Assembly: GCA_000611775.1 (NCBI GenBank)
Contig: KK106982.1
Coordinates: 930,001-994,000 of the forward strand
DNA length: 64,000 bases
Source: Umbilicaria muhlenbergii
Taxonomy: Eukaryota > Ascomycota > Lecanoromycetes > Umbilicariales > Umbilicariaceae
Direction: 5' to 3'
Below, piece by piece: positions 3,001 to 58,216 of the stretch (within the stretch, counting starts at the first letter, position 1; the number at the start of each line of letters is the position of its first letter). A program made the translations under genes and the position numbers. Under the pieces are notes generated by a model. The model saw nothing but the letters and a program-made list of their open reading frames with translations. It did not search any database and was not told the DNA's origin.

Positions 3001-6000
3001 CACTCTGGCGACGCAACGCTCATCCTACCTCCACAGGATCTTGATCCTGAGACAGTCCGAAGGATCGAGGACGCAACCAGGAAAATCGGTAATGCACTGA
3101 ACGTCACAGGTCCCTTCAACATTCAGTTCATTGCGAAAGACAATGACATCAAAGTCATAGAATGCAATGTCCGCGCATCAAGGTCTTTCCCCTTCGTGTC
3201 GAAAGTCATGGGAGTCGACCTCATTGAGATGGCTACCAAAGCAATGATTGGCGTCCCTCTTGTCGAGTATCCGCCAATCAACATACCCAAGGACTATGTT
3301 GGAGTAAAAGTGCCTCAGTTTTCATTTTCCCGACTCTCAGGTGCGGATCCAGTCCTGGGTGTAGAGATGGCCTCAACAGGTGAAGTTGCTTGTTTTGGCC
3401 GAGACAAATACGAGGCTTACATCAAGGCCCTAATATCTACGGGCTTCCGTCTACCCAATCGAAATATCCTCCTATCGATTGGCTCATTCAAGGACAAGAT
3501 GGAAATGCTTCCTTCCATCGGTAAACTGTACAAAATGGGGTACAGTCTGTTTGCCACCGCTGGTACAGCCGACTACCTCCAGGAACATGCAATTCCTGTC
3601 AAATACCTTGAGACGCTTGCAAACGAAGAGCAGAACCAGAAGTCTGAATACTCATTGACACAGCACCTGGCAAACAACCTCATTGACCTGTATATCAATT
3701 TGCCCTCCAGCAACCGCTTCCGGCGACCAGCGAACTACATGAGCAGTGGTTACAGAACCCGAAGGATGGCGGTTGATTACCAGACTCCTCTCGTAACGAA
3801 TGTCAAGAATGCAAAGATCCTCATCGAAGCGATTGCAAGGCACTATGACCTTGAGATACAGGGCATCGATTCCCAGACCAGTCACCGCACGATCGTATTA
3901 CCAGGTCTGATCAATATCGGTGCTTTTGTACCTGGAGTTGCTGTCAATGGAAGCCATGACTTTAAGAGGGTTACAAAAGCCTCGATCACCTCAGGCTTTA
4001 GCATGATAAGAATCATGCCGCTTGGGCTAGAAGGATCAATAACAGATGCACGGGCTCTCAAAGTAGCTCAGCACAATGCTCGGCAAAACGCATACTGTGA
4101 CTTCAACTTCTCTGTTGCAGCGACTTCCAGCAATGCAGAGCAGGTCAGTCAAGTCGTTTGTGAGGTTGGCTCATTGTTCATCCCCTTCAACCATCTGTGT
4201 GGTAATGTCAGCAAAGTCGCCGCGATCACAGCACATTTCTCAGCATGGCCAGCTTCTAAACCAATGATTACGGATGCCAAAACCACTGATCTCGCCTCGG
4301 TTCTCCTTTTGGCAAGCCTCCACAATCGCAAACTGCACGTAACGAGTGTGACTACGAAGGACGATATCGAGCTCATCGCTTTGAGTAAACAAAAAGGCTT
4401 GCAGGTCACATGTGATGTGTCCGTGTACTCACTCTTCTTATCACAAGAGGACTATCCTCAGTGTTCCTTCTTACCCGCCGTAAACGATCAACATTCGCTA
4501 TGGGAGCACATGAGCACGATCGATACCTTCTCCATCGGAAGCCTTCCGTACCAAGTAACCTTTGAATTGAAGGAGGCAGCAACACCGGCTGTAGGCATCG
4601 CCGATACCCTTCCTCTACTCCTCACCGCGGTCTCCGAGGGTCGACTCACCGTGGAAGACATTATCTCAAGGCTTCATGACAAGCCGAAGGAAATCTTCGA
4701 GCTTCATGAGCAGATTGGCACGTCTGTGGAAGTTGAAATTGATCGACCTTATGTCGTGCAAGCCACCCCGTTGTGGTCCCCTTTTGTTGGCAGAACAATG
4801 AAGGGTTCTGTTCAGAGGGTCATCTTCCAAGACAAGACTGTTTGTCTCGATGGCGAGTCTAGGGTGGATCTAGCCCATGGTAAAGACATGTCAAGCCATG
4901 CCCTATTGCCACAATCGCCGGTCTTGAAGGCGGCAGCTTTACCAACATCACCAACCTCCTATCCTCGGCCAGACAGCTTTCCCGACCGGCGTCAATCGGT
5001 ACTTTCTACCCGACCGTTTAGTCGTCTTAAGCAGCTTGACGGTCACGTACCACAGTCACCAATCGGTTCCACATCTGCCGTTGCCGACGACTTTGGGCCT
5101 ATGCTCTACCAGCCCATGCCATCAGCGTCGCCATCCCTCCTCGAATTGCTAGCTCGATCGTCTTTCAAACAAAGACATGTCCTGTCCGTGAACCAGTTCA
5201 ACCGCCAGGACCTCCACCTTCTCTTCACCGTCGCCCAAGAAATGCGCCTCGGCGTCCAACGACATGGTATCCTCGACATCCTCAAAGGCCGCCTCCTCTG
5301 CACCATGTTCTACGAGCCCTCGACTCGCACCTCCGCCTCCTTCGACGCCGCCATGCAACGTCTCGGCGGCCGCACCATCGCCATCTCCCCCTCCCACTCT
5401 AGCACGCAAAAAGGCGAGACCCTCCAAGACACCATCCGCACCCTCGGCTGCTACGGCGACGCCATCGTGCTCCGCCACCCGGCCGAATCCAGCGCCGCCA
5501 CCGCCGCCAAGTTCTCCCCCGTCCCCATCATCAACGGCGGCAACGGCAGCGTCGAACACCCCACCCAGGCCTTCCTCGACCTCTTCACCATCCGCGAGGA
5601 ATTGGGCACCGTCACCGGTCTCACCATCACTTTCACCGGCGATCTCCGCTACGGCCGCACCGTCCACTCCCTCGTCAAACTGCTCCAACACTACGACGTG
5701 CACATCCAACTCGCCTCCCCCGCCGCTCTCGCCCTGCCCGACGACGTGCGCCAGCAGCTCATCAGCTCCGGGCAATTGATCGCCGAAGCGAACGAGTTGA
5801 GCAGGGAGATAGTGGCCAGGAGTGATGTGTTGTATTGCACGCGGGTGCAGAAGGAGCGGTTTGAAGATCTGGAGCAGTACGAGCGGTTGAAGGATGCGTT
5901 CGTGGTGGATAATGCGGTGTTGAAACATGCGAAGGCGCAGATGGTGGTGATGCATCCGTTGCCGAGGAACGCGGAGGTGGGGGAGGAGGTCGATTTTGAT

Positions 6001-6069
6001 CAGAGGGCTGCGTATTTCAGACAGGTGGGTTGGTCTGAGATTCCGGTGGTGAAGATTGTGAGAGTGTGA
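1..6069 (+). CDS. URA2: CAD-type pyrimidine enzyme (CPSase II / aspartate transcarbamylase), 5'-truncated by window edge
   Basis: Performs the first two steps of UMP synthesis in the cytosol: carbamoyl phosphate from glutamine, bicarbonate and ATP, then carbamoyl aspartate. The frame is open at base 1, so roughly the first 220-250 residues (CPSase small-subunit part) lie outside; 2022 codons are present, without an intron. Visible in order: class I glutamine amidotransferase (GICLGHQ nucleophile near residue 95, FHPES near 180); the two duplicated ATP-grasp halves of CPSase; an MGS-like regulatory region ([10 protein letters not shown]); a dihydroorotase-like region lacking the metal-binding HxH; a linker rich in Ser and Pro; and C-terminal ATCase ([27 protein letters not shown]). 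The decayed DHOase is normal for fungi, where DHOase is encoded separately. UTP feedback on the MGS region is known in the family. The ATCase part has strongly skewed base composition (see findings). Confidence 0.97.
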
Positions 6070-6832
6070 CTGCTAACTGACGGGTGGATTAGATGCGTTA
6101 CGGGCTTTATTGCCGGATGGCGCTGTTGGCGTTGGTGATGGCTCCGTGATGGATGATTGAAAGTAGAAGGGCTGGGTTGGGTGCATGGCGTTGGGGTTTA
6201 GGAAAAAGTTATATATGTGTTTTGCCTGGGTGGTGGAAATGCCACCGAATAAGGATGGTGGGGACGGTTGAGGCCGGGTGGATATAGACAAAAGGTTGGA
6301 CAGCAATGGAGGAAAGGGTCAACGTTTCTTGTGGACGCTGCTGGTATCTTGGTATGAGATTGAATAGATCGTGTGCGTCTTCGTTAGTCGGTCAGCTACT
6401 TAGCTAAGAAATCAACGCATATTGAGAAGAAGCGTGTGAAATAGTTGGATGTCGTTGACTGCTTCAGCAATACTCAGCATGGATTAACTCATCTTCACGG
6501 CTAGCACTCTCGCACGCGGCAAGGAGGCCGAGACAAGAGCCCCCTAGAAAAAAAACCGTTCCTCAGGCTTCGACGGCCATACTTATTATCAGCTACCTAG
6601 CCAGGACATGTAACATTCCAGCAAAACCCACATAGACCCAAGCACCGTCAGCCAATCCCGTCCCAGGTCCCTACCGACCCTTTTCCGGTCCCAGCCCAGC
6701 CTTCCTTCCAATCGTGTCATAAGAATCATATCATACAGTCGTAAAAGATGTTCATACCCCATACCCCGTACCTCATTACCCTCATTCAAACCCACTCCAA
6801 TACCCCACCTATCGCATTACCAACACACAAAC
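6070..6832. other. Convergent 3' gap between URA2 and PPS1
   Basis: About 760 bases between two converging stop codons. It should hold both 3' UTRs. I see no credible coding frame, repeat or RNA gene in it. Confidence 0.6.
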
Positions 6833-9183
6833 TCATCTGGCATAAGGTTTATTCATCGCCGCAATCTCCCTCGCAATAGTCGCCCACTCCAACTGTCTCC
6901 GGAGCGGCTTCCCGCGCTTCAACTGCTGCGTCTCCTCCCACTTGAGAAGCTCGTACGCGAAGCGGAGGTGCGGTTGGATGATGACGTTCAGACGACGGGC
7001 GCGGACGAAACAACTGGATTTGCGGAAGCGGGTGAGTAAGAAGAGTGTACTCTGCTGACGAGGAGAGTGCAGAGGGGGAAGTGAACATAAACTTACTAAG
7101 CTTCTGGAAAAGACAAGCCCATTGAACTCATGACTTCGGCGATACAGATGGTGGCCGACCTCGAAACGCCCACTCGACAGTGAACCAACGTGGCTGTACC
7201 GTCTGATCTGCCCTTCTCTGTGCCATGTGTTAGCTCGTTATCAACTCCTCGTACTACACTATTGCGGCCATCCCATACCGATAAAGTCCAAACATCTCTC
7301 AAACTCGTCCGTGAGAGGATCAACGCCATTATCCTGCACCCGATCGACGGAAAAAATATTCTCCCTGCCCCAGCTACTCAGGTCTCGTTCGGTCCAGCCG
7401 ACGGGCTCGCCGACGCTGAGAACGCGCCTGATACCCATGGCCTTCAGCAGCTCCGGATTGTTGGCGTGCCCCAGATTCCCGAGGTACATATATGGAAGTA
7501 TGCGGCTTGGCAAGCTCCCATCTATGCGCGAGAGCCAGGCAGGTGCTTCTCGCTCAATCTTTGACACATCCTTCGGTCGTCGGGGCGACTGGCGCAGAAT
7601 GCGAGGTTGAATGGCTGTGAGTAATGCCACGTCGGAGGGATACGAAAAGAAGTTGCGCTTCTTCTCGCAATGAAGGCGAAGCCAGGCATCGTGTGCAGGT
7701 GCGCACTCGGCATACATGAAGTACGCCAAACCCAGTAGTGTACTCTCGGTGTAGCCATCTGTACAGTGTATGAGAATTTTGCGCGGTCGTTGGGACAGTG
7801 TGGTCATGGGGATGTCGCCGTCACTGTCAGATTCTTCCTCGACAGAATCAGACGAGTTTCCCGGGTTTGCAAGTCTATACATCCACTGACACATCTCCAT
7901 AAGGCCATCAACTTCCGCATGTGACCACGTCGGTGGCATAATGCTGCCTGACGAGGGGAACTCGATGTGCTGTAGAGCAGAGTCACTCAGTTCTGCAATA
8001 CGCCTCAGCGCATCAGAATGGGGAAGTTGGGCAAGGTCGCTCGCCTCAATGAGAACATCGAAATCATATTTCTCCTCTTTGCGAATCGAAGAGCGGCAGA
8101 GAACCGAATCCGGTGTGGGTCCCATCCAGACATTGTTGGCAATCTCCGAAGCCTTGGACATAGTGCACATTTCTTGTCGCTCTCTCTGGACTGGGAGGCG
8201 TTAGGTCGTGAGCTCTTAACCACATACTGTAGATGATAAACACTCACAGAAATCGATCACTTGTGCTGTCACTTGTCCTTGGGAATCTACGGCTACAAGC
8301 TCAGGATAGTGCTGCTCGAACTCGCTGAACGGGCCTGGAATGAGAACGTCAATCCTGGAGATCCAAAGGAGCTTGGAGCAGACGCCAAGGCCTTTGGAAC
8401 AGACATTCACTCACTTGAAATAACAAAGGTCCCAAAGGTAGGCATAGCTTGTCCGCTCAGATCAGCCTTTAAACCCCATGATTTCCGAGCTTCCGCGACT
8501 CTCTTGGCTAAACGTTGCACATCTTCCATAGTCGACGCTTCCTCACCATATATCACAATGTCCGAGACCATTGCCATTTTTGCGACTTGTATCTGGAAGT
8601 TCCGTACAGAGAAACCATCCTTTGGATCCACGTCCAGAAATGCGCAACTTTGTGAATTACCAGGAGATAATAGCTCTTCTGGAGCGATAGCTCCTTTTAA
8701 CCTCGATCGATTGAGATCACCATCAACCTTTATGATCGTGATGCCTCGTATGCATTTGGGCGTCTTCCGTAGTACCTTTCGTCGTGCAATGAAAAAAGCT
8801 AATTGAAGCTGGTTGTCGGGATGGAGACCATGTAGCCAGGGAAAGACCTGCTTGGGTTCAGGCAGTGGCTGAGCAGCTATGTGTTCGAGCGCAGCTGCCA
8901 GAGTAGAAGCGTCTATTGAGTAGACCGGAGGGCTGTCAAAGACCTTTGAGTAATTTTCGGCGGGGTGAAGTATGGAGAATGTTTGAATATTGAGATATTT
9001 CGAGGGTGGCGACGCAGGTGGAGTAGCTGGTGTTCTAATCTGCGCGGCTGGTGAAGGCCCCGGAGAGCAGAAAGGAAGGTGTTTGTTTGGCAGCGGTATG
9101 GAGTTGAGCTTGGCGGTATCTAGACTTAGTGCGGGCGTATGGGGCGGGGAGGTTGTAGATTGTTGGACCACTAACGTGGCCAT
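6833..9183 (-). CDS. PPS1: PPS1-type dual-specificity protein phosphatase
   Basis: Five exons: 8415-9183, 8248-8334, 7279-8190, 7097-7217, 6833-7013; 689 aa, the usual PPS1 length. Dephosphorylates Tyr and Ser/Thr; the yeast protein is linked to S-phase control. The catalytic signature HCRVGVSRS (Cys about 603) is in exon 4. A second phosphatase-like fold near residue 428 has HCTDGYTES, where the arginine of the HC-x5-R signature is Glu, so it is probably non-catalytic. The C-terminal RARRLNVIIQP stretch is typical of the family. All introns are GT-AG and keep frame. I chose the ATG at 9183 (MATLVVQQ); an in-frame ATG at 9285 would add 34 residues. Convergent with URA2. Confidence 0.92.
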
Positions 9184-9724: not shown

Positions 9725-9759
9725 GGCAGAAGGCAGAAGGAAGAAGGAAGAAGGCAAGA
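9725..9759. repeat. Heptamer array GGMAGAA
   Basis: About five 7-bp units: GGCAGAA twice, GGAAGAA twice, then a diverged GGCAAGA. Purine-rich and lying between genes. Confidence 0.75.
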
Positions 9760-27554: not shown

Positions 27555-27617
27555 TGATCTCTCGGTTCTGATCTCTCGGTTCTGATCTCTCGGTTCTGCT
27601 CTCTCGGTTCTGCTCTC
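27555..27617. repeat. 14-bp repeat GATCTCTCGGTTCT
   Basis: Four to five tandem copies of a 14-bp unit; later copies have GCTC in place of GATC. The unit length is twice the 7-bp period of other arrays here. Confidence 0.85.
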
Positions 27618-28235: not shown

Positions 28236-28306
28236 AGTATCCCTACAAGGCATCCAAGCATCCCCACGAGGCATCCAGTATCCCTACAAGGCACCCAAGC
28301 ATCATC
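28236..28306. repeat. 41-bp direct repeat, about 1.7 copies
   Basis: AGTATCCCTACAAGGCA occurs at about 28236 and again at about 28277, each followed by similar CATCC/CACCC-rich sequence ending in CAAGCATC. Confidence 0.7.
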
Positions 28307-36754: not shown

Positions 36755-37083
36755 ATGGCAAGAAACCAGAGGCGAGCGGACTTTAGCAGAAAGCTCGATC
36801 CTGACATGTAAATCATCATATACATAACAAGGTCGTACCAAACATATATACAGCCGCAACATAGGCAGAAACCCGGCAGACACTGCATTGGAGTATGTCA
36901 AGCATAGACAGGCGTGAGGCGTGAGGCGTGAGGCATGGCAGGACACGTAGGGAAACATTTGACGGCATTTTAGGTGACACTCGCTACGTAAGCTCTGCCC
37001 CGGCCCCACGGGTCCCCCATATATTTGGATGTTGTGCTGCCCTGCGGTCTCTTCAAGCTTGACAACCACTATCATTTTCAACC
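36755..37083. other. Gap between the MFS and PI31 genes
   Basis: 329 bases between co-oriented genes: the transporter 3' UTR and the PI31 promoter. Holds a short heptamer array, listed separately. Confidence 0.5.
36911..36938. repeat. Heptamer array GGCGTGA
   Basis: Three perfect 7-bp units and a diverged fourth. Read on the minus strand the phase CTCACGC differs by one base from the TTCACGC unit of the 10053-10143 array. Confidence 0.8.
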
Positions 37084-38414
37084 ATGGCCATCAACGCCGG
37101 TAATCCGCTGAGCGCGGGCTCTCTGGCCACCTTCATGGCAGCAAGTCTCCCCACAGAACCGCCAGCCCATCTCCGCGACCCCTACGACGCCGTCGCCCTC
37201 TTCAGCCACGCCTGCATGATATCAATCGGCTTCCGACTGAAAGGCCTGGGCGAAGAGCACAAAATAGGTACACGTTCCTCCCTGCACCTACAGCGCAACT
37301 AACCCCCTGATAGAGCTAACGCCCACCCTCTCCCTCTTAGAAGCCAGCCGCGAAGCCTCCGACCCCGCGCCCCTCCCAATCGAATGGAATTCCACCACCA
37401 CCTCCACCTACGCCTTCCGCTACGCCCACACCCAATCCTCCCTCGAATTCTTAATCAAAGTAACCCGCCTCGGCAACAAAGCAGTAATCAACGCCCTCGG
37501 CATCGGCGACGACCGCGTGCACTCCCTCGACATCCTAACCCGGGACTTCTTCTCCCCCCACCGCTTCCCCTACACCGCCTCCTCCTCTACTCACAACGAC
37601 ACCGTCGCCCTCTCCCGCGCCCTGCAAGACCTTTTCATCTCCGTCGGCCGCATCTCCGATCTAGCTGCTTTGTTCAAACTCCGCATTATCCAGAAAATCG
37701 CCCTCGGGTTGGCGAAGGAGGGGTATGAAGATTCCTCCTCCGAGGACACTTCGGAGAATACTACCCCCACGGGCGCGGATGGCCGCCGCGGCCAACAACC
37801 CGCGCCGGGGCGCGACCCGGCTGCCGGCCCGCCCCACCACGATCCCCTGCGTGACGACCGCGCCCCGCCCGCGCGGCCTTACCCTTTCGACGACCCGCTA
37901 GCTGCGGGTCCACGTCGGCCATTTCCAGCTGGCGATTTCCCGCCCCCGGGCTTCGAGGACGAGTATGAGATCAATCGACCGCCTGGACGGGGAGGGATAG
38001 CCGGGGAGAGGCGACCGCTGAATATTGGGGAGAGGGATCTTTATCCGCAAGGGCTGGGGCCGCGGGATCCTCTCGGGGGCGGAGGGTTTGGCGGAGGGTT
38101 TGGCGGGGGAATTGGCGGCGGGGGGATGCATCCGACGTTTGAGGATCCGATGTTTGGTGGTGCGGGTGGGGCAGGTGGGGTCGGGGCTTATGGGACGTGA
38201 GTTTTTCCCCGGGGGGGGGGTTATTCGGTGTGCGTATTTGTGTGCTGATTTTGGGGGTAGGGCGCCACCGGGGGCGAGGTATGATCCTGTTGGTCCGGGG
38301 GATGGGCCGCCGAACTTGAGGGGCGGGAGTAGGTTTCCGGGAGGGGGGGGAGGGTTTGGGACTGGAGGGCCGGGGAATCCGTTTGGGGGGTTTGGGGGGA
38401 ATGATTTCATCTGA
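37084..38414 (+). CDS. PI31-like proteasome regulator
   Basis: Three exons: 37084-37267, 37314-38196, 38261-38414; 406 aa. N-terminal FP-type domain (residues about 15-190; DPYDAVALFSHACMISIGFR, LPIEWN, LEFLIKVTRLG) and a long Pro/Gly/Arg-rich tail ending GGFGGNDFI, the layout of PI31/PSMF1, which binds 20S proteasomes and aids their assembly or transport. Gly-rich repeats fill residues 320-406. The gene is C-rich up to about 37690 and G-rich afterwards. The last intron begins in a G-run (GTGAGT followed by C4 then G10). Confidence 0.88.
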
Positions 38415-38974
38415 GGCGAGGGTTGGGGATGGGTGTCGCGTGGGATGGGATGGGATGGTTGGAGTATGGAAGGGTTGGGTTGGCTTACGTGGGCGGGTTT
38501 AGAACATTACCGAACACTCGGACTTTGTTGCAAACGGAGGATATGAAGATGAAAGTGATGGTTAATCAGTGGTTGAGATACGTGCTCTTGTTGATTATGA
38601 AACCGGGGTCTCCCCGGAGTAACCCCGTCTGCTTCACTACCAAGTCACTGATCTTATTGTTTGGCTGATTTTGTTGGCTTATAAACCCCGGAAGCAATCT
38701 GGACATATTCTGGTCTACGAAGATGACATAGACACGATGTGCACTGTAGCGAGGAGGAGTGATATCTACATGTATTAACAGTTCGGTCACATCATCTATC
38801 TACAAGCAACCACTACAAGCCTCCCCAAGCACGCACGCTATGCAAGCGCCAGCGCTATCGCTGTCCAGGCCACAAAACCGCAAAAAGCCCTTCAAGGGCA
38901 AAGCCGAACCCCACCATTCCAGCTGGTGATTCCTCACCCACTCTATGCCCCCAATCTTACACTCTAAACATACC
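38415..38974. other. Convergent 3' gap PI31 / GH72
   Basis: 560 bases between converging stop codons; both 3' UTRs are expected here. No gene or repeat recognised. Confidence 0.5.
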
Positions 38975-40552
38975 TTATATACAGATTAGTAACGACAGGG
39001 CAATCGCGCCTATCAACCCCAAACCGCCGATATTATTTCTACCGCCCGCGCCCTTCTTCGTCGCCGTCGGGTTCGTCGCACTACCCGTACTCGAGCTTGA
39101 CGAGAGCGCCGACCCTGATGTATCCTTCCCGTTCGGCGTATTGCTCTGATCTTCCGGCAGCGGCTTGATGGCCAAGTTCTGGATCACGCCGCCAGAGCTG
39201 GAATAGACCATTGCAGCGACGGTGTTCTGATTGACTGTGACGAGTTTTCCATTATTGGGGTTACTGATGCCGTTGTCGATCAGCTGCTGGCCGCCGGAGG
39301 GGAGGGACGGGATGTCGAATTTGTTATAAAAGCCCTTGGCGGTGATGAGACTGCTTTTGCAGGTTGGAGGCGTTAAGCCTGTGGCGGTCGAGTTGCCGGA
39401 CTCGAGCAGGGTGACGTTGAGTTGATTATACTGTTTCTGTAGATTATCGTAGTCGCCACGGAGCTGGGCGGTGCCATTTTCGTAAAGCACGACGAGGCCG
39501 TAGTCGGAGACTTCTTGCGAGTATTCGTAGACCAGGCCGCCGCTCATGACGGATGTCATCTGAGGGCCGTAGAGGACAGGGACTTCGCTGAAGACGCGGG
39601 GGAGGACGAGGTTGCAGCCGTACTCGGAGAAGAAGACGGGGATGGTGGTGTTGGCGAATTGGGAGACGAGTGTATCGTAGCCGGAGGAGTCGTATGTGGC
39701 GTTGCCGCACCATGAATAAGAGTTTAGGCCGAAGAAGTCGGAGCGGGACATGTCAGACGTAGAGCCGTTGATAGCGCACTGCAGGTATTCCCAGGTGTCG
39801 GCTAGGATGTCGCTCACATCGGCCGCAGAATATCCCACAGGGATGGTCCGAGTTGAGTGCTTGGCGATGTAATTCTTCAAATCCCGGGTCACGGCCCTCA
39901 GATATGGTGGCACTACCCCTCCGCTTGGATCGTCGTTGATAACTTCGTTGCCTGCGAAGAAGCCCAAAGTGTTCGGATAGTCCTTGAACGCCTCCACGAC
40001 CCCGAATATCTGCGTGAGGTAATCCGAGTTGTAGGTACTCCCGGGATCTCCTCTGTTCAGACTCTGACCTGGTAAGGGCGAATTAACGTCCAACAACATG
40101 TATATGCCGACAGCGTTGAAAACACTAGCGCACATGTCGTGGTCGATGGCAGGATCGAGGTTGTATACCCGTATGGTGTTGATTCCCAGTTGCTGCATGA
40201 GAGCCGCATCCCGCAGGCAGGTAGTACCATTACTTAGCGGATCAACGCCGGAGCCGGGGTTGAAACCTGACGAACCGCCAGGCTGGTAGCTGTGAGACTT
40301 GGTCAGTTGGGCCCTGGGCTCTGTGGAAATGGTCGGGAAATGCTCACGCAACACCAATAATCTGGAGGCGACTGTTGGTGACGGTGTTGACAAAATCGGC
40401 TCCCTGAACCTTGATGTTTTGCACCGCGGAGGCAATGGACGTGTAAAGCGCAAGAAGCGCAACGGCAGTTTGAAGTATCTGTGGTCAAAGACATGAGTCA
40501 GCTTGCACTTGCGATTGGTGTGTTAGTCAAGATTTACACTGACTGCACGCAT
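38975..40552 (-). CDS. GPI-anchored 1,3-beta-glucanosyltransferase (GH72, Gel/Gas type)
   Basis: Three exons: 40544-40552, 40348-40478, 38975-40289; 484 aa. The first exon has only three codons (MRA) and uses a GTCAGT donor; joining to ILQTAVALLALYTSIASAV gives a clear signal peptide. Elongates cell-wall beta-1,3-glucan outside the plasma membrane. The two GH72 catalytic glutamates are Glu162 (AGNEV) and Glu269 (FSEYGC), at spacing close to that of Gel1. No cysteine-rich CBM43 module follows, so it belongs to the short GH72 type. A Ser/Thr-rich stretch and a terminal hydrophobic segment (GLGLIGAIALSLLICI) indicate GPI attachment. Confidence 0.94.
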
Positions 40553-45060: not shown

Positions 45061-47510
45061 ATGGCTTTGAACTGGATATGCCTCTTCCTCGCCGTTGTGC
45101 TGGTGCTCCAGGCTTCTCCTGCATCAGCTTTCGGAGCCGGGAACATAGGTTGATATGCTTTCCTGAGAGGCTAGGATTCATGCTGACAGTCTCTACAGCT
45201 TCGATCTCCAAGCTCGAAGGTCACAATTGGCGCCATGGCGATATCGAAGATATGCTTAAGACCATCGCTTTCCTCAAGGGCCATAAATGGACCTCCATGA
45301 TGGTGAAGCGTGTATACTTTGGCAACTGGCTCCGGGATTACTCCCAAGCCGTGGACGTGGGAACACTAAAAGGTGTGCAATCTGCCACCATAAGGATATT
45401 GGTCTGGGTGCTCTCTTTCCTGAGTTTTGGCTATGCCACCGAAGAATTCGAGGTCACGGAGGAACGTCTAGGGGTGTATAGGCCAGAGGAACACATTGAC
45501 AACCCCAAAGACTATGCAGACAACATAGATGCCAGGAAGTACGATCAGAGATTACGGCCGCCTATCGAGCCCATAGAGCTTGAGATTGATCCAGAGACGG
45601 GTATGAAGAACTACATCGCCAACGAGAAATTGGGTATTGCTACCAGTGTCGGGTATGTCAAGCACAGCTTTATGAGATCGATACACTTTGGAAGAGTCTA
45701 CACAAGTGGCGCCAGTGGAATGAAGGGCAAAGACGCGGATCTACACGAGGCTCTTAGATGCTTGGGACAAGGGCTACATTGCTTGGAAGATTTTGGCGCA
45801 CACACAAACTATACCGAGCTTGCGCTTCGAGAACAGGGCTTCAGAGACGTCTTCCCTCACACTGGAAGTGCAACAGAAATCAATCTGCGAGGCCATAGAG
45901 TTTTCCCACTCGTTACTGGAACGTTCGGCGCAGTTGACTTTTTACACTCCGTGCTGGGCGAAGCAACAGATCACTTTGCTCAAACCGAGGTCGATGAGCT
46001 GAACAAGGCCCTAGGAGATGCGCAAGCACAGTCGAAGGGCTCTTCCGGAGACGTTGGCCGAAACTTTGGTCGATCTGGACAAGATCTCTCCAACCTGACT
46101 AGCTTACTATCTCAGGTTCCCGGGGCTGGTGGACTCTGCCAGCAGGCTGAGCAGCTCCGGGCCCAAGCGGATGCGCAGGAAAAGCAGAACTCTGGAGATG
46201 TTGACCGTGCGACAAGCGCCTTGGGTGTTAATAGACCGCCGTCCTTCGCAGGTCCACCTGGAGCACCGGGTGGTCCTCCTGGTCCAGGCATCCCTGGTTG
46301 GGAAACATTCGACCCTATCAAAACTGCAGCTCAGATATATCCAATCCTTGAGTTTCGAGACAAGGTCGTCAAAGCAATTTCTCTGACCCTCGAGAAGATT
46401 CCTGGCCTCGAAGCCCTAGTCGAGAAAATCACGGAGACAGTGACACTGTTTATTCTCTCGCTCTTGGCTCCGTACATTCGCCCCATCATCAATGCTGTGA
46501 GCAATCAGCTCAAGACCGGCAGTTCAACAGTCATTGACGCCAGTGGCAAACAACAATTCGGACCCTGGCAAGACCCGCATTGCTCGGACCCCACGCACTC
46601 CATGCTCTCCAAAGACCATTTCTCCAACATCTTGAACGAGCCTGCCGGGCAGGTCGCCTCCACTATCCTGCAATACGTCGCCCCTCGCATCATCTACGCA
46701 TGGCAACACCCCGATATCCCTGTCGAACAAGTCCTATCCGACGTCTGCCGCGTCTTCCACCACCCCGCCATCCGAGATCCACACTGCGAACTCCACCGCA
46801 ACATGTACGACACTGTCCAACGCTGGGTGCACTCCCTCCCCGACCGCGGCACCTCCCTAAACAACACCCTCAGCTCTGAAGGCGTGCATCAGGGCCGCAA
46901 CCACAAAGGCGACAACGACGCCAACACCCCCCATAACCACGGCGGTCTCCCCGGCGTCGGCCTCCCCGGCGTCGGAAATTTCTTCCCCCCCAGCACCCAC
47001 AGCAAACTCGGCAGCGCTTCCCCCTGGGAGAAGATCACCCAACTACGCGACACCACGGGTATCCACCGCGACGACATCGGCACCACAGCCCCCTCCATAG
47101 CCGCCGAATACCCCGGCACAGTCACCAGCTACGACGCCACACGCCCCCCTCCCGGTCCGTCGTCCGCATACGAGGGCGCCTCCTCCTCCCCATCCCCCGT
47201 TCCACCGCAGCAGGTCTCCTACGGCTACACCCAGCCCCAGACCCAGCCCGACTACGGCGGTCCATCGCCGGTCCCGCATCAGCAAAGTTCGTTCTCTAAC
47301 CCGCCGCCTGCTGCAGCTTACCAACAAGATTACGGGAGTGGGTACCAACAGGGGCCCCCTCCTCCCGCTTTTGGTGGGGGCTATGCGCCTGGGCCGGGGT
47401 ACGGGTTCGATTCGAATGCGCCGCAGGTGCCGTATGGGTATGGAGGAGGACCGCCGCCGCCGGGGCCGGGACAGGGGCAGGGGCAGTATTATGGGGGGCC
47501 GCGGTATTAG
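45061..47510 (+). CDS. hetC: HET-C heterokaryon incompatibility protein
   Basis: Two exons: 45061-45148, 45199-47510; 799 aa. The signal peptide MALNWICLFLAVVLVLQASP is in exon 1; the first codons of a longer read-through frame starting at 45078 are an artefact. Residues about 25-580 are the HET-C core (LEGHNWRHGDIE, VYFGNWLRDYSQA, LHCLEDFGAHTNY). The last 200 residues are Gly/Pro/Gln/Tyr-rich and disordered-looking. In Neurospora, allelic differences at het-c trigger incompatibility after hyphal fusion; whether this protein does so cannot be told. Its 3' part is C-rich, then G-rich from about 47320. Confidence 0.95.
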
Positions 47511-48036
47511 GGATTGCGTGTGTGGAATGGAAGTGGCGTTTTGAGGTTGGGGTTGTCTAGGGAATGGGAGGATTGGGGAGATGGCATGGGCATTAGGGGG
47601 GGATGAATAGGTTTGCTCACGTATATGCAGAATATGCATCTGTTCTACTGGAATGAAGTGCAGTCTAGGTTTCAATAGATCACCCAGTCTATTCTTTCTA
47701 AGCGTACTCTTACTGAATGTAATGTCACTCGCCCTCGGAATGTTTGAACTCCCGAACACATTAGATCCGAGGGAGCACTGATCTGCCGCACCATGACTCT
47801 TGCATTGTGAGCTGAATCTGCTATCTCGCAGAAGACTCCATGCATCTCTACCGTGTCTGCAGCGCCGACCCATGACTCCGGAAAACGCCCACGCTGGTTA
47901 ACTCACGCCCATGCGATGCCGACGCCACGGCATTCGTCATTCGTCATTACGACAGCGTCCTCTAAGCACTTGTGCATGTGAATCTAGGAGTCCCCAAAGC
48001 CCAGGTGTTCCATCGTTCTCCAACCTCCCGCGTCCA
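47511..48036. other. Convergent 3' gap hetC / SAL1
   Basis: 526 bases between converging stops. Includes a small 7-bp repeat (CATTCGT twice plus CATTACG, about 47933-47951). No gene. Confidence 0.5.
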
Positions 48037-50171
48037 TTATCTCAACCCCAACACCCTCTTTGAATTGTCGTAGACGACATAGGTGATACTAACAGCGGGA
48101 ACAACCTTCAACAAATTGGGCGTGATGCCTTTGAACAAGCCCCTTACGCCCTCACCGCGCACAGTCTTAACCGTAACGTCCCAAATACCCGTATAAGTAG
48201 GCGGATGGATGGCTGTGCCTTGACTCTGCAAACGCGTTCTTAGAACGTTGATGGGATATACAGCGCTGGCGCCGAGCGCCCCACTGACGGCGCCGATACC
48301 AGCTGTCATAACGTTACCAGGCGCGGCGTCTTCTTCGTGACAGTGGCGGGCTTTGGCATTGCGTGCGGTGATGAATTGTTTGAGGTATTCGAAGGTGGTG
48401 AGATCGAGGGCGCTGTATGGAAACATGCCGACCAGGCCCATAGGGAGACCTCGATAGAAAGAGCGGATGCCGGATGTGGTCCACATTTTCTTGGCGGTGG
48501 CGACGATGAGGCGGTTGCCGTGGAGGCCGCCTTGAACGGTCTCGCATTGCATGCGACTGGTTTCGAGTCAGTGTATGTACCTCCGTCGATGATTGGAGGA
48601 GAGTCACCTACAATTTCAGGGTATCTAAGGGGTATATACAGAACCTGACACCGCGTTAGCATTGTCCCAGTAAACTGGTGAGAGTATCACTGACTGAGAA
48701 ATGATGCCTCCGAGACCGGCAGCAAAGAATTGTGACCATGGATTGAGAGCTTTCGGATCATCGTGACCTTCTAGCTTTGCTAATGCTCGTTTCGAGCCCT
48801 AAGTTAGAGTTCAGCTTGCGTCCCAGCTCAAAGTCGGACTTTTTGTTACCTCGTATGATCCAAATTTGATGGCTGATTCTGGCATGACCTTGAGCACGTT
48901 GAGGCCGTTGCCTGCTCTGTCAGCGGAGGCATGCGAAGATCCAAGGAGCGCCCTAACCTGCAAACAAGCTTCGTATTCCTCCCATGCGCCACAATGTTCT
49001 AGTTGCCTCGATCAATGGTCTCGATGCCTTCTTCGCGGCTTGTACAGGCGCCCCCGACTTCACGGCAAGGATTGTTTCGGCCCTAACACCCGTTTGTGCG
49101 ATGAGGTAGACCTTCAGTCGATCCAAGGGTGCCGTTGCTGTTCGCGATACGACGCCGGCAATGCCTCCCGCGAGAAAGTAGCCTGGGTCAGGCATGAGAT
49201 CCGTCAGCAATGTGATACTCCCCAATTCGCTTGTTGAGGTTTCCTCCACAATCGCCGCCAATAGTGGCGGCTCGGCTTCCTTCGTTGTCTGTTCCCCTGG
49301 ATCCCAGGCAAAGGAACTAATTTGCCTGTCCTTCGCAGTCCTCGATGATTTTGGCTCGTTGGTCGGTATTGGAGTTGGTTGTGATGGACGTCGTGGCCGA
49401 GAAGGGTTGGCAATGGCAGCAAGTGCGGCAGCAAAAGTGCCAAACAAAGTTGTAAGAAAGTGGTGTCTACCTAGTCCCTCTACTGTCTCATCCGATACTT
49501 GTACATCCCCTTCTGAATTGAGTGTCACTGTTGAAGAGTAATATGAGAGTACCGCTTTAAGACCAGGTGCGTGCGCGGGTATAAAAAGCAGAAAATTTCT
49601 TGCTAGTGAGTCAGCCGATATTGAGGGAAGCCAGTCATCGACGTGAATAACTACCTCCATTCATCGAATGTTATGACCCCATCATGGTTCGAATCCACTT
49701 CAGCAAAGAACTGATCGAACTTTGACTGAGGAACGACAAGGCCTGCCCGAGCGAAGGCAGACTTCAATTCTCCTTTATCCAATTGACCGTTGTGGTCCCG
49801 ATCTATGCTCTTGAAGAGCTGCCGCAGTTCTCTCTCGGTCTGCTCCACGAAGGTGCGGAATTCTTTCCCATGCATCAGCGTAATTCACAATTGTCCACTC
49901 CAATAACGCGTACCGGAATACTGAATGCGACCATCGCCACCGAGATCGACTGCTTTGAAAACATCTTGAAGCATGTCATCGGCATTCTTGAGAGCTGGCG
50001 GCATTATCAGCATCGCCGCATGAGCACAGCGATAACGCACTCACGGTGATCTATTTTTCGAAGGCCCTTCTTCAACGCCTTGATATCCAGTTGGCCTTCC
50101 TTACGTGTGTCCAAGTCCTGCCAGAGCTTCTCCACCCGCGCGTCTCGTGCGTTCTGTGATTCGCCCTCCAT
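48037..50171 (-). CDS. SAL1: EF-hand mitochondrial carrier of SAL1/SCaMC type
   Basis: Eight exons: 50045-50171, 49914-49994, 49655-49862, 48958-49598, 48850-48911, 48695-48798, 48612-48644, 48037-48556; 591 aa. Exchanges ATP-Mg for phosphate across the inner mitochondrial membrane in a Ca2+-dependent way. The N-terminal half faces the intermembrane space and has EF-hand loops (DLGGDGRIQYSE, DRDHNGQLDKGE, DSNHDGVITFDE), the first (DTRKEGQLD) being weak. Three mitochondrial carrier repeats follow (TAPLDRLKVYL, YPLDTLKFRM, YPINVLRTRL). The start at 50171 gives MEGESQNARDARVEKLW. Confidence 0.94.
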
Positions 50172-52712: not shown

Positions 52713-53180
52713 TCTCCCAGACCAATGATGCAGTAGGCCCTTCGGCAGTCATGATGGGAATTATCAAGTTGCTATAGCAGATTGATGGGATCCATTCATG
52801 AACAGGCTGGAATTACGAGTTGCACTTTGATGGGTTCGCTCCTTCCAAAAGTAAGCGGCAGGCAGCCACCAACCAGTGTTTGTTCTTCGGTGTCCGAATG
52901 CTGCAGCAGTCACCAGCTCGCAGATCCTAAAGCATTCACAAGTTGCTTCTCGACTAGAACATCATCTTAGTTCACTATTCTCAGACACCAATTCAGAGAT
53001 GTCGTGAACATTGCCTAGCGGCCGTCTCTCTATTCATCATTCTGAAACCTGTCTCAGGCGGCTCAAAAGACGCCGCCAATCTGCCTCTTTTCTTTACCCA
53101 CCCACAAATCTACATCCATACCCATTATCCAATCAAACATCCCCCACCAAGTCATAAACACATAAGTAAACATGAAGATA

Positions 53181-54501
53181 TCACAACGCCATCAAAAAGA
53201 GGCTCCCCACACCGAGAACGACCAAGAGTACGGTGCAAATAACCATGGTATCACCTCCACGGATTTTCGCCACGATGCCGAAGATCGTAGCGGCCAATAA
53301 ATCCAGAGCCACAATGATGCCTTTCATGATCTTGTGACTGGCACGCTCGGGGTTGTGTTGTGCCTCGAGGTCGAGAAGGCCAGAGGAGGCTGGTGGTGCT
53401 CCCTTACGCGACAAGGCCTTCGGATGGGTCCCTTTGATGTTGATGTAGAAGGGAGAGGCTGAGGCTGGTTGATTATACGGTGAGGCCTTCGAACTGGTGC
53501 CAGCAGATGGCAGCTCGTGCTGTTGTTGGTAGTCGGCTGATTCGTTCGTCAGATGACGTGGGGTATATCTGGACTTCGCTCCGGGGGATTGAAAGGCAGG
53601 GGGCTGAGACGACGCGTTCTTACGCCCACGAGCCTGGTTCGCTCCCTTGGAGGAGGTTGATTGAAGAGCGGTGGTGGTCGCACCTTGGGCTTCCATTGCA
53701 CGGGTCGGTGCATACCCCGGATCGAGCGACTGCAATTGGATGCCGGATTCCACTTCGGTCGGTGGTGAGGGAATACCTTCGAGCCACGCCCCAAGCCCAC
53801 GCGCTTCCTCTTTGAAGGGAGGAATCGGTGGCAGATCTGAGGATCCTAAGTCAGATCCATTGGAACGGTCCGAATCAGTATCATAGCAGGCTTTGTTGGA
53901 GTCTGGACATTCGCTCTTGGCATCCTCGTCAGGAGCAGTCCCCACCGAGGTGGGCTGAGTATCCTCATTTTCAATGTCTTCTGACTCCCGAGCAATTGAG
54001 GCGGTTACCGTGGAAGTGTCGTTGGTCGATGGTTCAACTAGAGCCTTCGGGATCCCGCAGTGGACTTGAGGTTGTGACTCGGACTCGACAAAGCTGGGTC
54101 GGCTGTGCTCATCCGCTGCATGAGAAGAGGATGGGTTATCGTGCGAGACACCATGATCTGAATCCACACACAAAGGTTAGCAACAGGTCTACACCGCTTC
54201 ACAATATCTCAAGCCAAGCATAAACAGTATACATACCTTCAGGAATCAAAACACTAGTAGGATCAGTACCTAAAGCCACCCCCGGCCCGATCAACTGCGA
54301 CTTGTTGGTGGTATTCCCCGCAATACCCTCATCCAAGCGCAACAACTCTGCCTGAATCTCACGACGATGCTCTTCAGGAGAGACTAGGGTGCCCGAGGAC
54401 TGCATTGCCCCGCGGGTTGTTGCCACAACTAGAGCGCCAGTCTCATCGCAGCGAAGATATGGTTCAGCTGCACCATCGGTGCCATCAGTTGAAGGCGACA
54501 T
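53181..54501 (-). CDS. Unknown 413-aa protein with C-terminal double membrane segment
   Basis: Two exons: 54237-54501, 53181-54157; GT-AG. Not recognised. Residues 1-95 include a short charged helix (EEHRREIQAELLRLDEGIAG). Residues about 95-350 are Ser/Pro/Glu-rich and disordered-looking, with a DLPPIPPFKEEARGLGAWLE block. The C-terminus has two hydrophobic segments (IMKGIIVALDLLAATIFGIV and TMVICTVLLVVLGVGSLFLM) split by KIRGGD, suggesting a hairpin anchor with the long N-terminal part in the cytosol. There is no signal peptide. Family unknown. Confidence 0.82.
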
Positions 54502-55697
54502 AGTGTTCGTGAGGCCTGGTTGAGGATCGAGGCCTGCAGCTCATCAATACCAATGCTGTGGGTGCATCCTACGCTGTGATTCGCGAGGACCACAAAGCTT
54601 TCCCCGCGAAGCTGCTCACCTGGAGTAGATGGTGGGGCGCTCAAATACAGAGGCAAGTCTCCGCAAGCAGGAGCGATAAGACTATGTTGACAGTTTCTAT
54701 ATAAAGCTCAGATGGCAATGAGTACTGTATGTCAAGCTCATTGCGGATGAGGAAGGACGAAATCGAAAGGGAACGTCAAAGTAGGAAACCGGAACAGACT
54801 ACACTGATATCCGACGAAGAGCGAATTGGCTGCTGCATGGCTGCTGCGCGTCATGTCCCCTGTCAGCCACACAACGACCTTATTCCGCCGCCGAGCGCCT
54901 TTCAACCTTGAGCACTTGTACAAGAAGCAGCAAAAACAGTGATTAAGTCTTCGGAGTGATAGAGAACTTCGACGTTGCTGTGAAACAAATTGCAGACGTG
55001 TAAGAGCAATCGACGTGTCTTGAAATCCTCTCGTCATGGTGCGCGCAAACTGATGTGGTTGATCGCCTCAGCCAATTGAACTCGCAACATGTAAGGAACA
55101 CATTGTGTTACTGTATCGTGAACAGATGCAACCAGATGAAAGTTTAGGTGAGGAGGCAGTCTTCATATACTATGCTGATGACCCCGCATACCGCATACCA
55201 GACTATTGGCCTGGGTACAAGGTACATATTTCTTCTGCTGCATCCCCGCCTGCTCATCTTCCGGCCCAACCATACAGACGAATAGGGCTGAACTCGAGGG
55301 AGCACGATAGCAGGACAGGGATTTATACGTGTCGAAGACTAAGCGCAAAAGCCAAGATACCGAACTAACATACATGTACATGTACATGTATGTTGTCACT
55401 GTTGTCCATGCTCAATTGACTTTCTTAGTGGCAACGCCACCCCCATTGTCGTGTCAGGGTCTTGTTTGCCTCAAACTGGGCCGCACGCCACAGCAGAAAG
55501 GAAGGCCTGAGGTTGTCTCAGTTGATTGATCCGAGCCGGCCTGCTCAACATTTATAAAATAAACGTTCCTGACAATAACATGCAATTTCTATCGATCGGA
55601 GCCCGATTCTTACAAGAAGATGCCACTCAATAATCGCGGCCATTATGCTGCTTCTACCCAGCATCCCTTGACGCCTTGCTCCGAATCCTTGTGCGTT
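54502..55697. other. Gap between BUB3 and the 413-aa gene
   Basis: 1196 bases, flanked by two minus-strand genes. Expected to hold the promoter of the 413-aa gene and the BUB3 3' UTR. A self-complementary (ACATGT)n stretch lies at about 55372-55392. No credible coding frame. Confidence 0.5.
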
Positions 55698-56880
55698 TCA
55701 CGATTTCGTACCCTTCCCCTTAGCCTCGTTCTCCCCCAACTCCCTCACGAAAATCTTCACAGACCCCTCCCCCAGATCCTCCTTCCCATCCTCGAACCCC
55801 GGGCTCACCCCAACCGCCAAATATTTCCCATCCGCCGAGAAGGCCAGCGCAGCAATACTCGCCGGGTACCGCTGGTATTGTCGAATCCTCCTTTTGGCAA
55901 CTCCATCCCAAAGCGCCACCAACCCGTCCCCACCACCGGACGCAAACGACCCATGCACCGGATGAAAGGCCAGCGCGTTGACGGGGTATATGACGTCGAC
56001 CCCCTCAGGCGACGGTTGTCGATGGCACTTGAACGCGTACTTCCGCGCCTGCGACGACTCCGACGGATCGAACCACTCGACAGCCACACGACCTTCGATG
56101 CTACTGCTGGCGTACCCGTCGTCATTGGGCATGCAGGCTACAGCGCGCGTCATGAATTTGAGACTGCTTTCGCGGCGCTGCCACGGTTGGACCTCGATGA
56201 TGTTGGGGGGCGGTTGGGAGGCTTGCGAGGAGAGGACGGAGAGCGCTTTGAGGTCGTAGATGTGCAGGGCGCGGGAGGCCATGGCGACGACGAGTTTTGT
56301 GGGGGTCAGCGAGAGCGAGAAGGGTTTCGACGGGAGTTGGATCGTAGTGGGGATTTGGGATGGTTTCGACGGGTGGTGGATGTGTAGGGTTGAGTCCCAG
56401 GATGCGGATATTAGCATCGAATGTTGGGGGCTGTAGACGACGGATTTGACACCGGCGTCGTGGGACGAGAGGACGGTTTGCTCGCCCGTGGAGAGATTGG
56501 TTCTGCGTCTTGATTAGACCTGTCATCCTCAACGCTTGCTTGAAACCCCTACTTGGGCTTCGCTCTAGTAACCAACCACTCACTTTCTCACATCCCAATC
56601 CAAGCCGGCCGTGAAAGCCTCCTTGTCATCCCCGCCAAAGCATACATCCAGTACGGGCGCGCGGTACTCGAACTTCTCTAGCAACGTGCCCCGGGACTCC
56701 GCGGTGTCGTACAAGTACACATGCTTGTCCCAAGACGCTACGAGTAAGCGGAGGCCCGTCGGCGCAAAGTTTAGGGCTGAGATGGCATCGGTGGGAGGGT
56801 CGGAGAGCTCGACCTGTGCTGTGGGCTAATTAGTCCGGATGACGGCATAAGACTTATGGGAACAACTTACCAGCACTCAT
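55698..56880 (-). CDS. BUB3: Spindle checkpoint WD40 protein BUB3
   Basis: Three exons: 56871-56880, 56584-56818, 55698-56502; 349 aa. Binds GLEBS motifs of Bub1 and Mad3/BubR1 and phosphorylated kinetochore MELT repeats. The first exon has only 10 nt (MSA plus one base), joined to AQVELSDPPTDAISALNFAP. Propeller features: VASWDKHVYLYD, SGGGDGLVALWD, GRVAVEWFDP, VNALAFHPVHGSFASGG, IAALAFSADGKYLAV. C-rich to G-rich switch near 56120. Shares a 170-bp divergent promoter with GPN2. Confidence 0.95.
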
Positions 56881-57050
56881 ATTGCTCCGAAGAAGGGTGC
56901 GCAAAGCTACGTATGTAAGGTGGAATAATCTCCAAACACACTGGGTGTTTGAGATGTTTTCAGTTCTCGCCTTACCACAAGGCTGTACCCATACAACACC
57001 AAGGCACCCCCAAGCTTTCCACTTCGCGCCGCGCCATACACTCATCCACT
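56881..57050. promoter_or_regulatory. Compact bidirectional promoter BUB3 / GPN2
   Basis: Only 170 bases separate the two start codons, so both transcription starts and leaders must share this interval or overlap. No TATA box seen. Confidence 0.65.
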
Positions 57051-58216
57051 ATGCCATTCGCCCAGCTCGTAATAGGGCCACCCGGCTCGGGAAAATCCAC
57101 CTACTGCGATGGCATGCACCAGTTCATGTCCGCCATCGGCCGCAAATGCTCCGTCGTCAACCTCGACCCCGCCAACGATCACACCTCCTATCCGTGTTCG
57201 CTAGACGTGCGGGACCTGGTGACGCTGGAGGAGATTATGGGGGACGATGGGCTGGGGCCTAATGGGGCTGTGTTGTATGCACTTGAGGAGCTGGAAGAAA
57301 ATTGGGATTGGCTTGAGCAGGGGCTGAATGGGCTTGGAGGTACCACTCGAGATATGTTGTGGGGAAACGAAAGCTGATGGATCCGATGTCGTAGAGGACT
57401 ATGTGCTCTTTGACTGTCCGGGCCAGGTGGAGTTGTTCACGCATCATTCGTCACTTCGCAACATCTTCTTCCGGATACAGAAGCTCGGGTACAGAGTCTG
57501 CTCCCACCCTTCGTCTACTTTCTTGGAGCTAGGAAGACGCTAACTTGCCATACATGTAGCTAGTAACACTCCACCTGACAGACTCGTACTGTCTCACAAT
57601 GCCCTCCCTATATATATCAACCCTCCTGCTGTCGCTCCGCGCCATGCTTCAGATGGATCTTCCCCACCTTAATGTCCTAACCAAGATCGATAAACTCGCC
57701 AGCTATGCACCCCTAGCTTTCAATCTCGACTACTATACCGAGGTTCAAGATCTGACTCATCTCCTTCCACATCTGGCGCAAGAGTCACCTCTTTTGCAGA
57801 ACCCCAAGTTTGAAGGGCTCAACAAAGCGATCATCGAGCTGGTGGAAGACTTCGCTCTAGTTGGGTTTGAGACTTTGGCTGTCGAAGATAAGAAGAGCAT
57901 GATGAATCTCCTGTATGCCATTGATCGGGCCGGGGGGTATGCCTTCGGTGGCGCCGAAGGTGCAAACGATAGCGTGTGGCAGGTCGCAATGAGAGAAGGT
58001 ATGGGCACGATGGACGTAAGGGATGTTCAGGAGAGGTGGATTGACTTGAGGGAGGTATTCGACGAGAAGGAGCGGCGAGATCTCAAGGAAGAGGCGAAAG
58101 CCAGGGAAGCGCCTTCATTGACTGACGACGCAGGCGATGAGGACGATGACGACGAGATCGAGGAGGTGGAAAGGTCTCTTCCAGACAGCGGAGTCAAAGT
58201 CGTCCGTCGGCCCTGA
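57051..58216 (+). CDS. GPN2: GPN-loop GTPase 2
   Basis: Three exons: 57051-57339, 57395-57495, 57560-58216; 348 aa. Acts with GPN1/GPN3 in assembly and nuclear import of RNA polymerase II and III. P-loop GPPGSGKST (about 9-17), the GPN insert (Gly69-Pro70-Asn71), FDCPGQVELF and TKID are present. The first intron uses the acceptor before EDYVLFDCPG; a nearer AG would leave only a 34-nt intron. The second donor is GTCTGC, unusual but with a GCTAAC branch site and correct frame. Acidic C-terminal tail (GDEDDDDEIEEVE). Confidence 0.94.

What the first reader, a model, noticed from the sequence alone, without database searches (positions are those of the whole stretch)
5220..57300. Recurrent short islands where the + strand flips from C-rich to G-rich
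At least nine places show the same sharp flip over a few hundred bases, centred near 5780 (URA2), 6950 (PPS1), 28830 (gene-free), 37690 (PI31), 39240 (GH72), 47320 (hetC), 48310 (SAL1), 56120 (BUB3) and 57210 (GPN2). Hand counts per 60-base line (C/G left; G/C right): 5281 29/10 and 5881 25/8; 6841 23/8 and 7021 27/7; 28501 28/8 and 28861 31/7; 37381 30/6 and 38041 29/13; 39001 26/8 and 39541 23/14; 46921 28/14 and 47461 31/10; 48001 27/6 and 48361 26/6; 55741 31/4 and 56281 28/8; 57121 25/12 and 57241 26/8. Gene direction does not matter, since C-left/G-right reads the same on either strand. In the conserved ATCase exon the skew is mostly at synonymous sites, so it looks mutational or conversion-driven, not protein-driven. 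The polarity fits leading-strand G enrichment around a bidirectional replication origin; R-loops or recombination-linked bias are other options. I know of no named element like this.
Basis: partly seen in the sequence, partly recalled or inferred. Interest (0 to 1): 0.78.

Follow-up and report, generated by a model that had tools for sequence, protein, structure and literature searches.

The report
C-to-G skew islands at convergent gene ends
In this fungal genome the last part of many genes, most often where two genes point at each other, switches from C-rich to G-rich at silent sites, which looks like a record of strand-specific DNA damage or repair at gene ends; a milder average form of the pattern is already known in fungi.

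Summary
All 18 hand counts are exact; eight of nine sites are clear flips, 48310 is weak. In 344 kb of this genome direct C-to-G switches outnumber G-to-C 52 to 13. The change is chiefly synonymous: at URA2 fourfold sites C goes from 0.28 to 0.66, then G to 0.84 (37 sites), while the other bases fall together.

These are mainly gene-3'-end features: 35 of 52 flips lie near a called 3' end, 14 nearer a 5' end. They favour convergent genes (35 of 104 ends versus 9 of 63 tandem, p=0.006). Replication origins do not fit the density, length or placement.

A published fungal average matches: genes C-biased, turning G-biased at the 3' end (McLean & Tirosh 2011). Apparently new: discrete two-armed islands, dependence on neighbour orientation, and an any-base-to-C/any-base-to-G pattern without AT skew. 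I favour transcription-linked damage of exposed single strands at convergent ends; recombination-linked conversion is the main rival. Nothing available here settles the mechanism, and no other fungal genome could be compared.

The parts
4941..6458 (.). Island 1: C arm 4941-5769, flip 5769, G arm to 6458; 3' end of URA2 (CPSase-ATCase, + strand, stop 6069)
   Evidence: HMM; ATCase domains up to residue 409 of the last 422; fourfold sites C 0.657 (169 sites) then G 0.838 (37 sites), 0 of 300 synonymous shuffles
6458..7083 (.). Island 2: C arm 6458-6943, G arm to 7083; presumed last exon (6833-7237, - strand) of the dual-specificity phosphatase gene (PPS1-like), convergent with URA2
   Evidence: HMM; DSPc match at the cut-off in the upstream ORF 7259-8200; the last exon itself has no Pfam match and rests on the codon model and on recalled resemblance
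27586..29188 (.). Island 3: strongest flip in the window (28805, score 205); no gene recognised; 1.2 kb beyond the 3' end of an uncharacterised - strand ORF (30026-31591)
   Evidence: HMM; score; ORFs; no tRNA, no Rfam match at gathering score; short tandem repeats in the C arm
36977..38497 (.). Island 4: flip 37947 in PI31 (+ strand, stop 38200)
   Evidence: HMM; PI31_Prot_N and PI31_Prot_C; synonymous shuffles reach it in 94 of 300
38787..39747 (.). Island 5: flip 39155 in the GH72 gene (- strand, stop 38975), convergent with PI31
   Evidence: HMM; Glyco_hydro_72; 8 of 300 synonymous shuffles
46562..47611 (.). Island 6: flip 47333-47372 in hetC (+ strand, stop 47510)
   Evidence: HMM; Het-C; 0 of 300 synonymous shuffles
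48001..48600 (.).
   Evidence: score 77, not called by the HMM; Mito_carr
53022..53680 (.). Flip 53321 (score 106), 140 bp upstream of the stop of an uncharacterised - strand ORF 53181-54176; not among the HMM's direct C>G switches
   Evidence: absent from the list; no Pfam match
55622..56500 (.).
   Evidence: HMM; WD40 repeats on the - strand, none on the + ORF; gene; 0 of 300 synonymous shuffles
56965..57435 (.). Island 8: flip 57193 in the 5' exon of GPN2 (+ strand): an exception to the 3'-end rule
   Evidence: HMM; ATP_bind_1 positions 1-86 in ORF 56919-57377
57435..58322 (.).
   Evidence: HMM; ATP_bind_1 and RNase_P_Rpp14

Best explanation
Shown here: two-armed composition islands (C arm and G arm, HMM segments of median about 370 bp) sit mainly near the 3' ends of a subset of genes, with the switch usually 110-640 bp upstream of the stop (21 of 26) and the G arm ending about 120 bp past it; they are commoner at convergent gene pairs; the change is mainly synonymous and follows an any-base-to-C (left) / any-base-to-G (right) pattern with little AT skew. 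Inferred: they are the local, strong form of the known fungal gene-end GC skew, made by strand-specific mutation linked to transcription where two transcription units overlap. In this reading the displaced non-template strand is exposed (stalled or terminating polymerase, R-loop) and its lesions are bypassed by inserting C opposite them (a REV1-like rule, recalled), so each exposed strand gains G. The sense transcript would mark the G arm; read-through or antisense transcription from the convergent partner would mark the C arm on the other strand. The exposure, damage and bypass steps are untested.
For: Position: average sense GC skew around 100 long-ORF stops goes from about -0.15 to +0.23 and back to 0 by +180 bp. 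Strand is supported by homology in the window for URA2, PI31, GH72, hetC, the carrier, the WD40 gene and GPN2, and in part for the phosphatase gene; outside it 15 of 30 ORFs tested at islands have a Pfam match on the called strand. Orientation: islands at 35 of 104 convergent and 9 of 63 tandem ends, p=0.006; by gap, convergent then tandem: under 300 bp 9/36, 3/18; 300-700 16/34, 0/24; 700-1200 9/16, 4/10; 1200-2500 1/18, 0/7; above 0/0, 2/4. Skew at the stop is higher in convergent genes (p=0.015; p=0.016). In convergent genes C-arm and G-arm strength are coupled (Spearman -0.68, n=56), in tandem genes not detectably (-0.21, n=29). Flip distance from the stop shrinks as the gap widens (Theil slope -0.29, interval -0.50 to -0.07, n=28). 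Spectrum: fourfold sites left A .129 C .587 G .142 T .143, right A .146 C .171 G .544 T .138 (26 long ORFs, at least one of them spurious); URA2 alone shows the same. G gains almost nothing over A in the C arm (ratio 0.92 to 1.00 in URA2). Published: fungal genes C-biased with a G-biased 3' end reaching the UTR.
Against: No transcript, R-loop or expression data exist here. GGGG runs are fewer than composition predicts on the outward G strand in all four bins (59 vs 88, 93 vs 130, 260 vs 358, 269 vs 317), which does not favour G clusters seeding R-loops, although coding constraint may contribute. The C arm is strongest next to the flip and fades upstream, unlike a simple transcript bias. The convergent-tandem difference in C-arm strength alone is not significant (p=0.09, and 0.11 among genes with a strong G arm); 4 of 12 tandem genes with a strong G arm also have a strong C arm. 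Two of 52 flips lie in no called gene, 14 nearer a 5' end, 1 mid-gene. By standard deviation the flip is no tighter around the gap midpoint (171) than around its own stop (154), only by MAD (84 vs 111). McLean & Tirosh saw only weak correlation with expression (R -0.096 and 0.071). The gene caller was trained partly on island sequence; a caller that ignored islands gave 10 of 62 versus 2 of 60 (p=0.03), after setting aside 47 close tandem ends with no island.
Confidence: 0.45

Rival explanations
1. Recombination-linked drive: flips mark recurrent double-strand breaks (for example meiotic hotspots) near gene 3' ends, and heteroduplex repair is strand-asymmetric (for example C:C mismatches poorly repaired, G:G well repaired), so the invading strand gains C on each side.
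For: Similar arm lengths of a few hundred bp, raised GC, one favoured polarity and arm coupling fit a point-initiated two-sided process. Extrapolated density (52 per 344 kb, about 5,000 in 34.8 Mb) is of the order of hotspot counts in another fungus: in Zymoseptoria tritici 1,435 of 2,578 hotspots lie in exons (passages only). The nearly preserved A:G:T ratio fits a fixation bias for one base.
Against: Human meiotic breaks mutate C and A on the exposed strand left of the break (passages), which predicts the opposite polarity if the flip is the break. In S. cerevisiae convergent regions have almost no breaks, although S. pombe can have them there (passages). The C:C argument is recalled; the paper searched for it showed only titles in its reference list. 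Ordinary GC-biased conversion would favour G over A and T in the C arm, and it hardly does. No polymorphism or crossover data.
Confidence: 0.27
2. Selection on the transcript: a C-rich then G-rich 3' region is favoured, to pause polymerase or prevent read-through between convergent genes.
For: Enrichment at convergent gene ends; the G arm ends a median 120 bp past the stop. Human genes with terminal GC skew have been linked to termination (Ginno et al. 2013, recalled, not seen).
Against: The mirror C arm has no role in this reading; G runs are depleted; 69 of 104 convergent ends carry no island; one island has no recognised gene (28805).
Confidence: 0.12
3. Bidirectional replication origins at the flips.
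For: Polarity equals the usual leading-strand G excess (recalled).
Against: 52 flips in 344 kb, arms that fade within about 1 kb, and placement by gene 3' ends and convergent orientation.
Confidence: 0.05

Closest known systems
Opposite GC skews at 5' and 3' ends of fungal genes (McLean & Tirosh 2011, PMC3315797; parts 1-3 of 4 of the text read)
   Same: Coding strand C-biased over most of the gene, then G-biased at the 3' end and often into the UTR (their fourth group); fourfold sites included; AT skew flat along genes.
   Different: Theirs is an average over genes, described with ramps. Here the signal is concentrated in a subset of gene ends as two-armed islands, depends on neighbour orientation, and the C arm is local to the flip. 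A term search of that text for convergent, antisense, neighbour, orientation and recombination gave 0 occurrences.
Terminal GC skew of human genes linked to R-loops and termination (Ginno et al. 2013; recalled, not seen in the searches)
   Same: G-skew at 3' ends of a subset of closely spaced genes.
   Different: No R-loop data here, and a mirror C arm is present; not comparable further from memory.
Strand-asymmetric mutation around human meiotic breaks (Hinch et al. 2023, PMC7615360; passages seen)
   Same: Mirror-image strand asymmetry around a point, C>G and A>G among the types.
   Different: Polarity is opposite if the flip is the break; the human footprint spans about 2 kb with off-centre peaks.
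C-bias around fungal and plant transcription starts (Fujimori et al. 2005, PMC555766; passages seen)
   Same: Transcription-linked strand bias in filamentous fungi.
   Different: Located at 5' ends; the passages seen describe no C-to-G switch.

Membership tests
Fungal gene-end GC skew (McLean & Tirosh pattern) | Sense strand C-biased in the gene, G-biased at the 3' end | tested here: met
   100 long-ORF ends: about -0.15 near -700 to +0.23 at the stop
Fungal gene-end GC skew (McLean & Tirosh pattern) | Bias also at fourfold sites and into the 3' UTR | tested here: met
   fourfold C .587 to G .544; G-arm sequence beyond the stop G .425 C .127
Fungal gene-end GC skew (McLean & Tirosh pattern) | Gradual change shared by most genes | tested here: inconclusive
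   Per-gene skew at the stop is overdispersed (chi2/df 7.7, 100 ORFs) and flips look abrupt, but simulations show that the way flips were picked makes smooth switches look sharp
Replication origin skew | Skew extending over replicon-scale distances on both sides (recalled) | tested here: not met
   Strong skew confined to about 0.4-0.9 kb on each side
Meiotic recombination hotspot footprint | Overlap with mapped breaks or crossovers | not testable with these tools
   No population or genetic map data for this organism
Meiotic recombination hotspot footprint | GC-biased conversion favouring G and C alike over A and T | tested here: not met
   In the C arm almost only C gains; G/A goes from 0.92 to 1.00 in URA2
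R-loop-forming terminal skew | G clusters on the displaced strand near the start of the skew (recalled) | tested here: not met
   GGGG below local-composition expectation in all four distance bins; coding constraint not controlled
R-loop-forming terminal skew | RNA:DNA hybrid present | not testable with these tools
   no experimental data

The most novel reading that the evidence does not exclude
The known fungal average skew is in truth the sum of discrete, point-centred islands, and these are a sequence-only map of sites where DNA at convergent gene ends is repeatedly single-stranded or broken. Where both partners carry an island, the two flips bracket the gap; seen from the gap centre the inner arms have the strand polarity of human meiotic break mutagenesis, so the gap itself could be the break or exposure site, with one dominant any-base-to-C insertion chemistry. 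(Probability lowered from 0.2: close flips are no commoner overall than random placement gives, 16 against 14.6 expected; only the excess at 950-1250 bp, 8 against 2.1, fits, and that range was chosen after seeing the data.)
Probability: 0.17. Interest if true: 0.85.

Novelty: new variant of a known kind. Interest (0 to 1): 0.55.

Why it matters
If right, a pattern known as an average becomes a set of individually readable sites in a single genome, placed by convergent transcription, with a simple base spectrum that suggests a candidate chemistry. That would let many sequenced fungi be used to ask whether convergent gene ends are zones of strand-specific mutation or of recombination. It also warns annotators: the C-rich arms are poor in stop codons and create long spurious antisense ORFs, as at the BUB3-like gene.

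Tried and rejected
Hairpin across the flip (C arm pairing with G arm): folding z against 15-bp block shuffles averaged -0.16 over 47 flips, 3 of 47 below -2; rejected. A shared motif at the flip: not established. GAGATC/GATCTC is about fivefold above the regional rate within 25 bp of the flips (3.8 against 0.74 per kb; present at 8 of 47), but the highest 6-mer count there (9) is reached at shifted positions inside the arms in 170 of 200 draws; a lead only. Structured RNA or tRNA in the window: no match. Very sharp switch (logistic scale 20 bp or less, 35 flips): withdrawn, because simulated smooth switches picked the same way also look sharp (18 simulated flips for each of six widths); my rough estimate from comparing the two is 100-250 bp. 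Longest-ORF gene calls include spurious antisense ORFs such as 55563-56387; their orientation count (21 of 50 convergent, 5 of 48 tandem) is superseded. G-arm end fixed to the stop rather than to the flip: inconclusive. Protein drive: no excess of amino-acid change in the URA2 island. Organism: not named; best named matches are Pleopsidium flavum Exo84 (62%) and Xylona heveae and Sarea resinae URA2 (75% and 74%), which suggests a filamentous ascomycete without a close named relative. The fetched C1:1-10000 tile (L003) was not used in any count. Ten paper searches: I saw no listed title or abstract describing two-armed islands or dependence on convergent orientation; only open-licence papers are held, lists were cut, and most papers were seen as listings only.
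Full report
What was checked. The window is C2:930001-994000 of an unnamed 34.8-Mb, seven-contig genome. All 18 quoted counts are exact; eight of the nine sites score 99 or more, 48310 scores 77, and the PI31 centre is off by 257 bp. Two further flips exist at 57806 and 53321.

More than chance. In 284 kb around the window, score >=160 gives 17 upward and 3 downward switches. A three-state HMM over 344 kb (that region plus 30 kb each from C1 and C4) finds 72 C and 76 G segments of median 370 and 372 bp, and 52 direct C>G against 13 direct G>C changes. Base shuffles within 2-kb blocks reach 109 up against 254 observed. Synonymous shuffles reach the observed flip in 0 of 300 for URA2, hetC and the BUB3-like exon, 8 of 300 for GH72 and 94 of 300 for PI31.

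Anatomy. Around 35 flips of score >=120, GC skew is about -0.5 and +0.5 within 300 bp and GC content about 0.61 against 0.52, falling towards background beyond 0.6-0.9 kb (the flips were chosen on 300-bp windows, which inflates these values). In sense orientation (26 flips in long ORFs) the C arm fades over about 800 bp and the G arm over about 500 bp. Fourfold sites show C .587 left and G .544 right with the other three bases at .13-.17. In URA2, A .235 C .281 G .216 T .269 (797 sites) becomes A .107 C .657 G .107 T .130 (169 sites), then A 0 C .081 G .838 T .081 (37 sites). AT skew at these sites is near zero. One base is favoured over all three others on a given strand; a transition-type or GC-biased-conversion-type process alone would not give that.

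Where. Average sense skew around 100 long-ORF stops crosses zero near -330 and returns to zero by +180. Per-gene skew at the stop is overdispersed (chi2/df 7.7). The skew itself creates spurious ORFs, so I used a codon model trained per composition state and checked strand by homology. In the window URA2, PI31, GH72, hetC, the carrier, the WD40 (BUB3-like) gene and GPN2 are supported; the phosphatase gene is supported by its upstream ORF only. Outside it I tested 30 of the ORFs listed at islands; 15 of 30 have a Pfam match on the called strand, one of them (Ribosom_S12_S23) showing that its ORF end is not the gene end. In one search, 35 of 52 flips are near a 3' end, 14 nearer a 5' end, 1 mid-gene, 2 in no called gene.

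Orientation. Islands occur at 35 of 104 convergent and 9 of 63 tandem gene ends (p=0.006); the stricter caller gives 10 of 62 and 2 of 60 (p=0.03). Convergent pairs with an island in both genes include URA2/phosphatase and PI31/GH72 in the window, and MatE/RPA and MFS/DDHD outside it. Close flips are no commoner than random placement gives (16 of 49 spacings under 2.5 kb, 14.6 expected), but 8 fall at 950-1250 bp against 2.1 expected, a range chosen afterwards. Among 28 convergent ends with an island the flip lies a median 297 bp from its own stop (SD 154, MAD 111) and 582 bp from the gap midpoint (SD 171, MAD 84), and it moves with the gap; which of the two anchors it is open. Arm strengths are coupled in convergent genes (rho -0.68) and not significantly in tandem ones (-0.21), but the direct comparison of C-arm strength is not significant (p=0.09).

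Mechanism. The polarity means that G is gained on the strand running 5' to 3' away from the flip. For transcription this is the displaced non-template strand of polymerases moving away from the flip, which needs opposing transcription, as at convergent ends. For replication it is the lagging-strand template, but scale and placement do not fit. For a break at the flip it is the resected strand, not the exposed one, opposite to the human footprint; only a repair-bias model would rescue that, and mismatch preferences were recalled, not found in the text searched. C insertion opposite lesions (REV1) would give any-base-to-G on the damaged strand; this is recalled knowledge and inference. Against R-loop seeding, GGGG runs are depleted.

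Known or new. [quoted passage not shown] The two-armed local islands, the convergent preference and the single-base spectrum appear to be additions, within the ten searches listed. Whether other fungi show the same could not be tested here.

Mends made on re-checking.

Noticed in passing
window 55563-56387 (+) versus 55698-56513 (-): C-rich arms are poor in stop codons, so the skew creates a long spurious + ORF over the WD40 (BUB3-like) exon; longest-ORF annotation picks the wrong strand.
   Followed up: yes
window 27554-28406: Short tandem repeats (periods 14, 20-21 and 11) lie in the C arm of the gene-free island 28805.
   Followed up: no
window 9715-10234: Heptamer tandem repeats (GGCAGAA, ACGCTTC x13, ATCAGAC x7) coincide with one of the few direct G>C switches (9876), so that switch may be a repeat effect.
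   Followed up: no
window 57193: An island in the 5' exon of GPN2, close to its divergent start with the BUB3-like gene: an exception to the 3'-end rule.
   Followed up: partly
flips in the 344 kb examined, within 25 bp: GAGATC/GATCTC is about fivefold over the regional rate at flips (8 of 47), not supported by a global test.
   Followed up: partly
C2:5884028-5884438 of the same genome (L002): A MATalpha_HMGbox gene, the only match reported in the genome.
   Followed up: no
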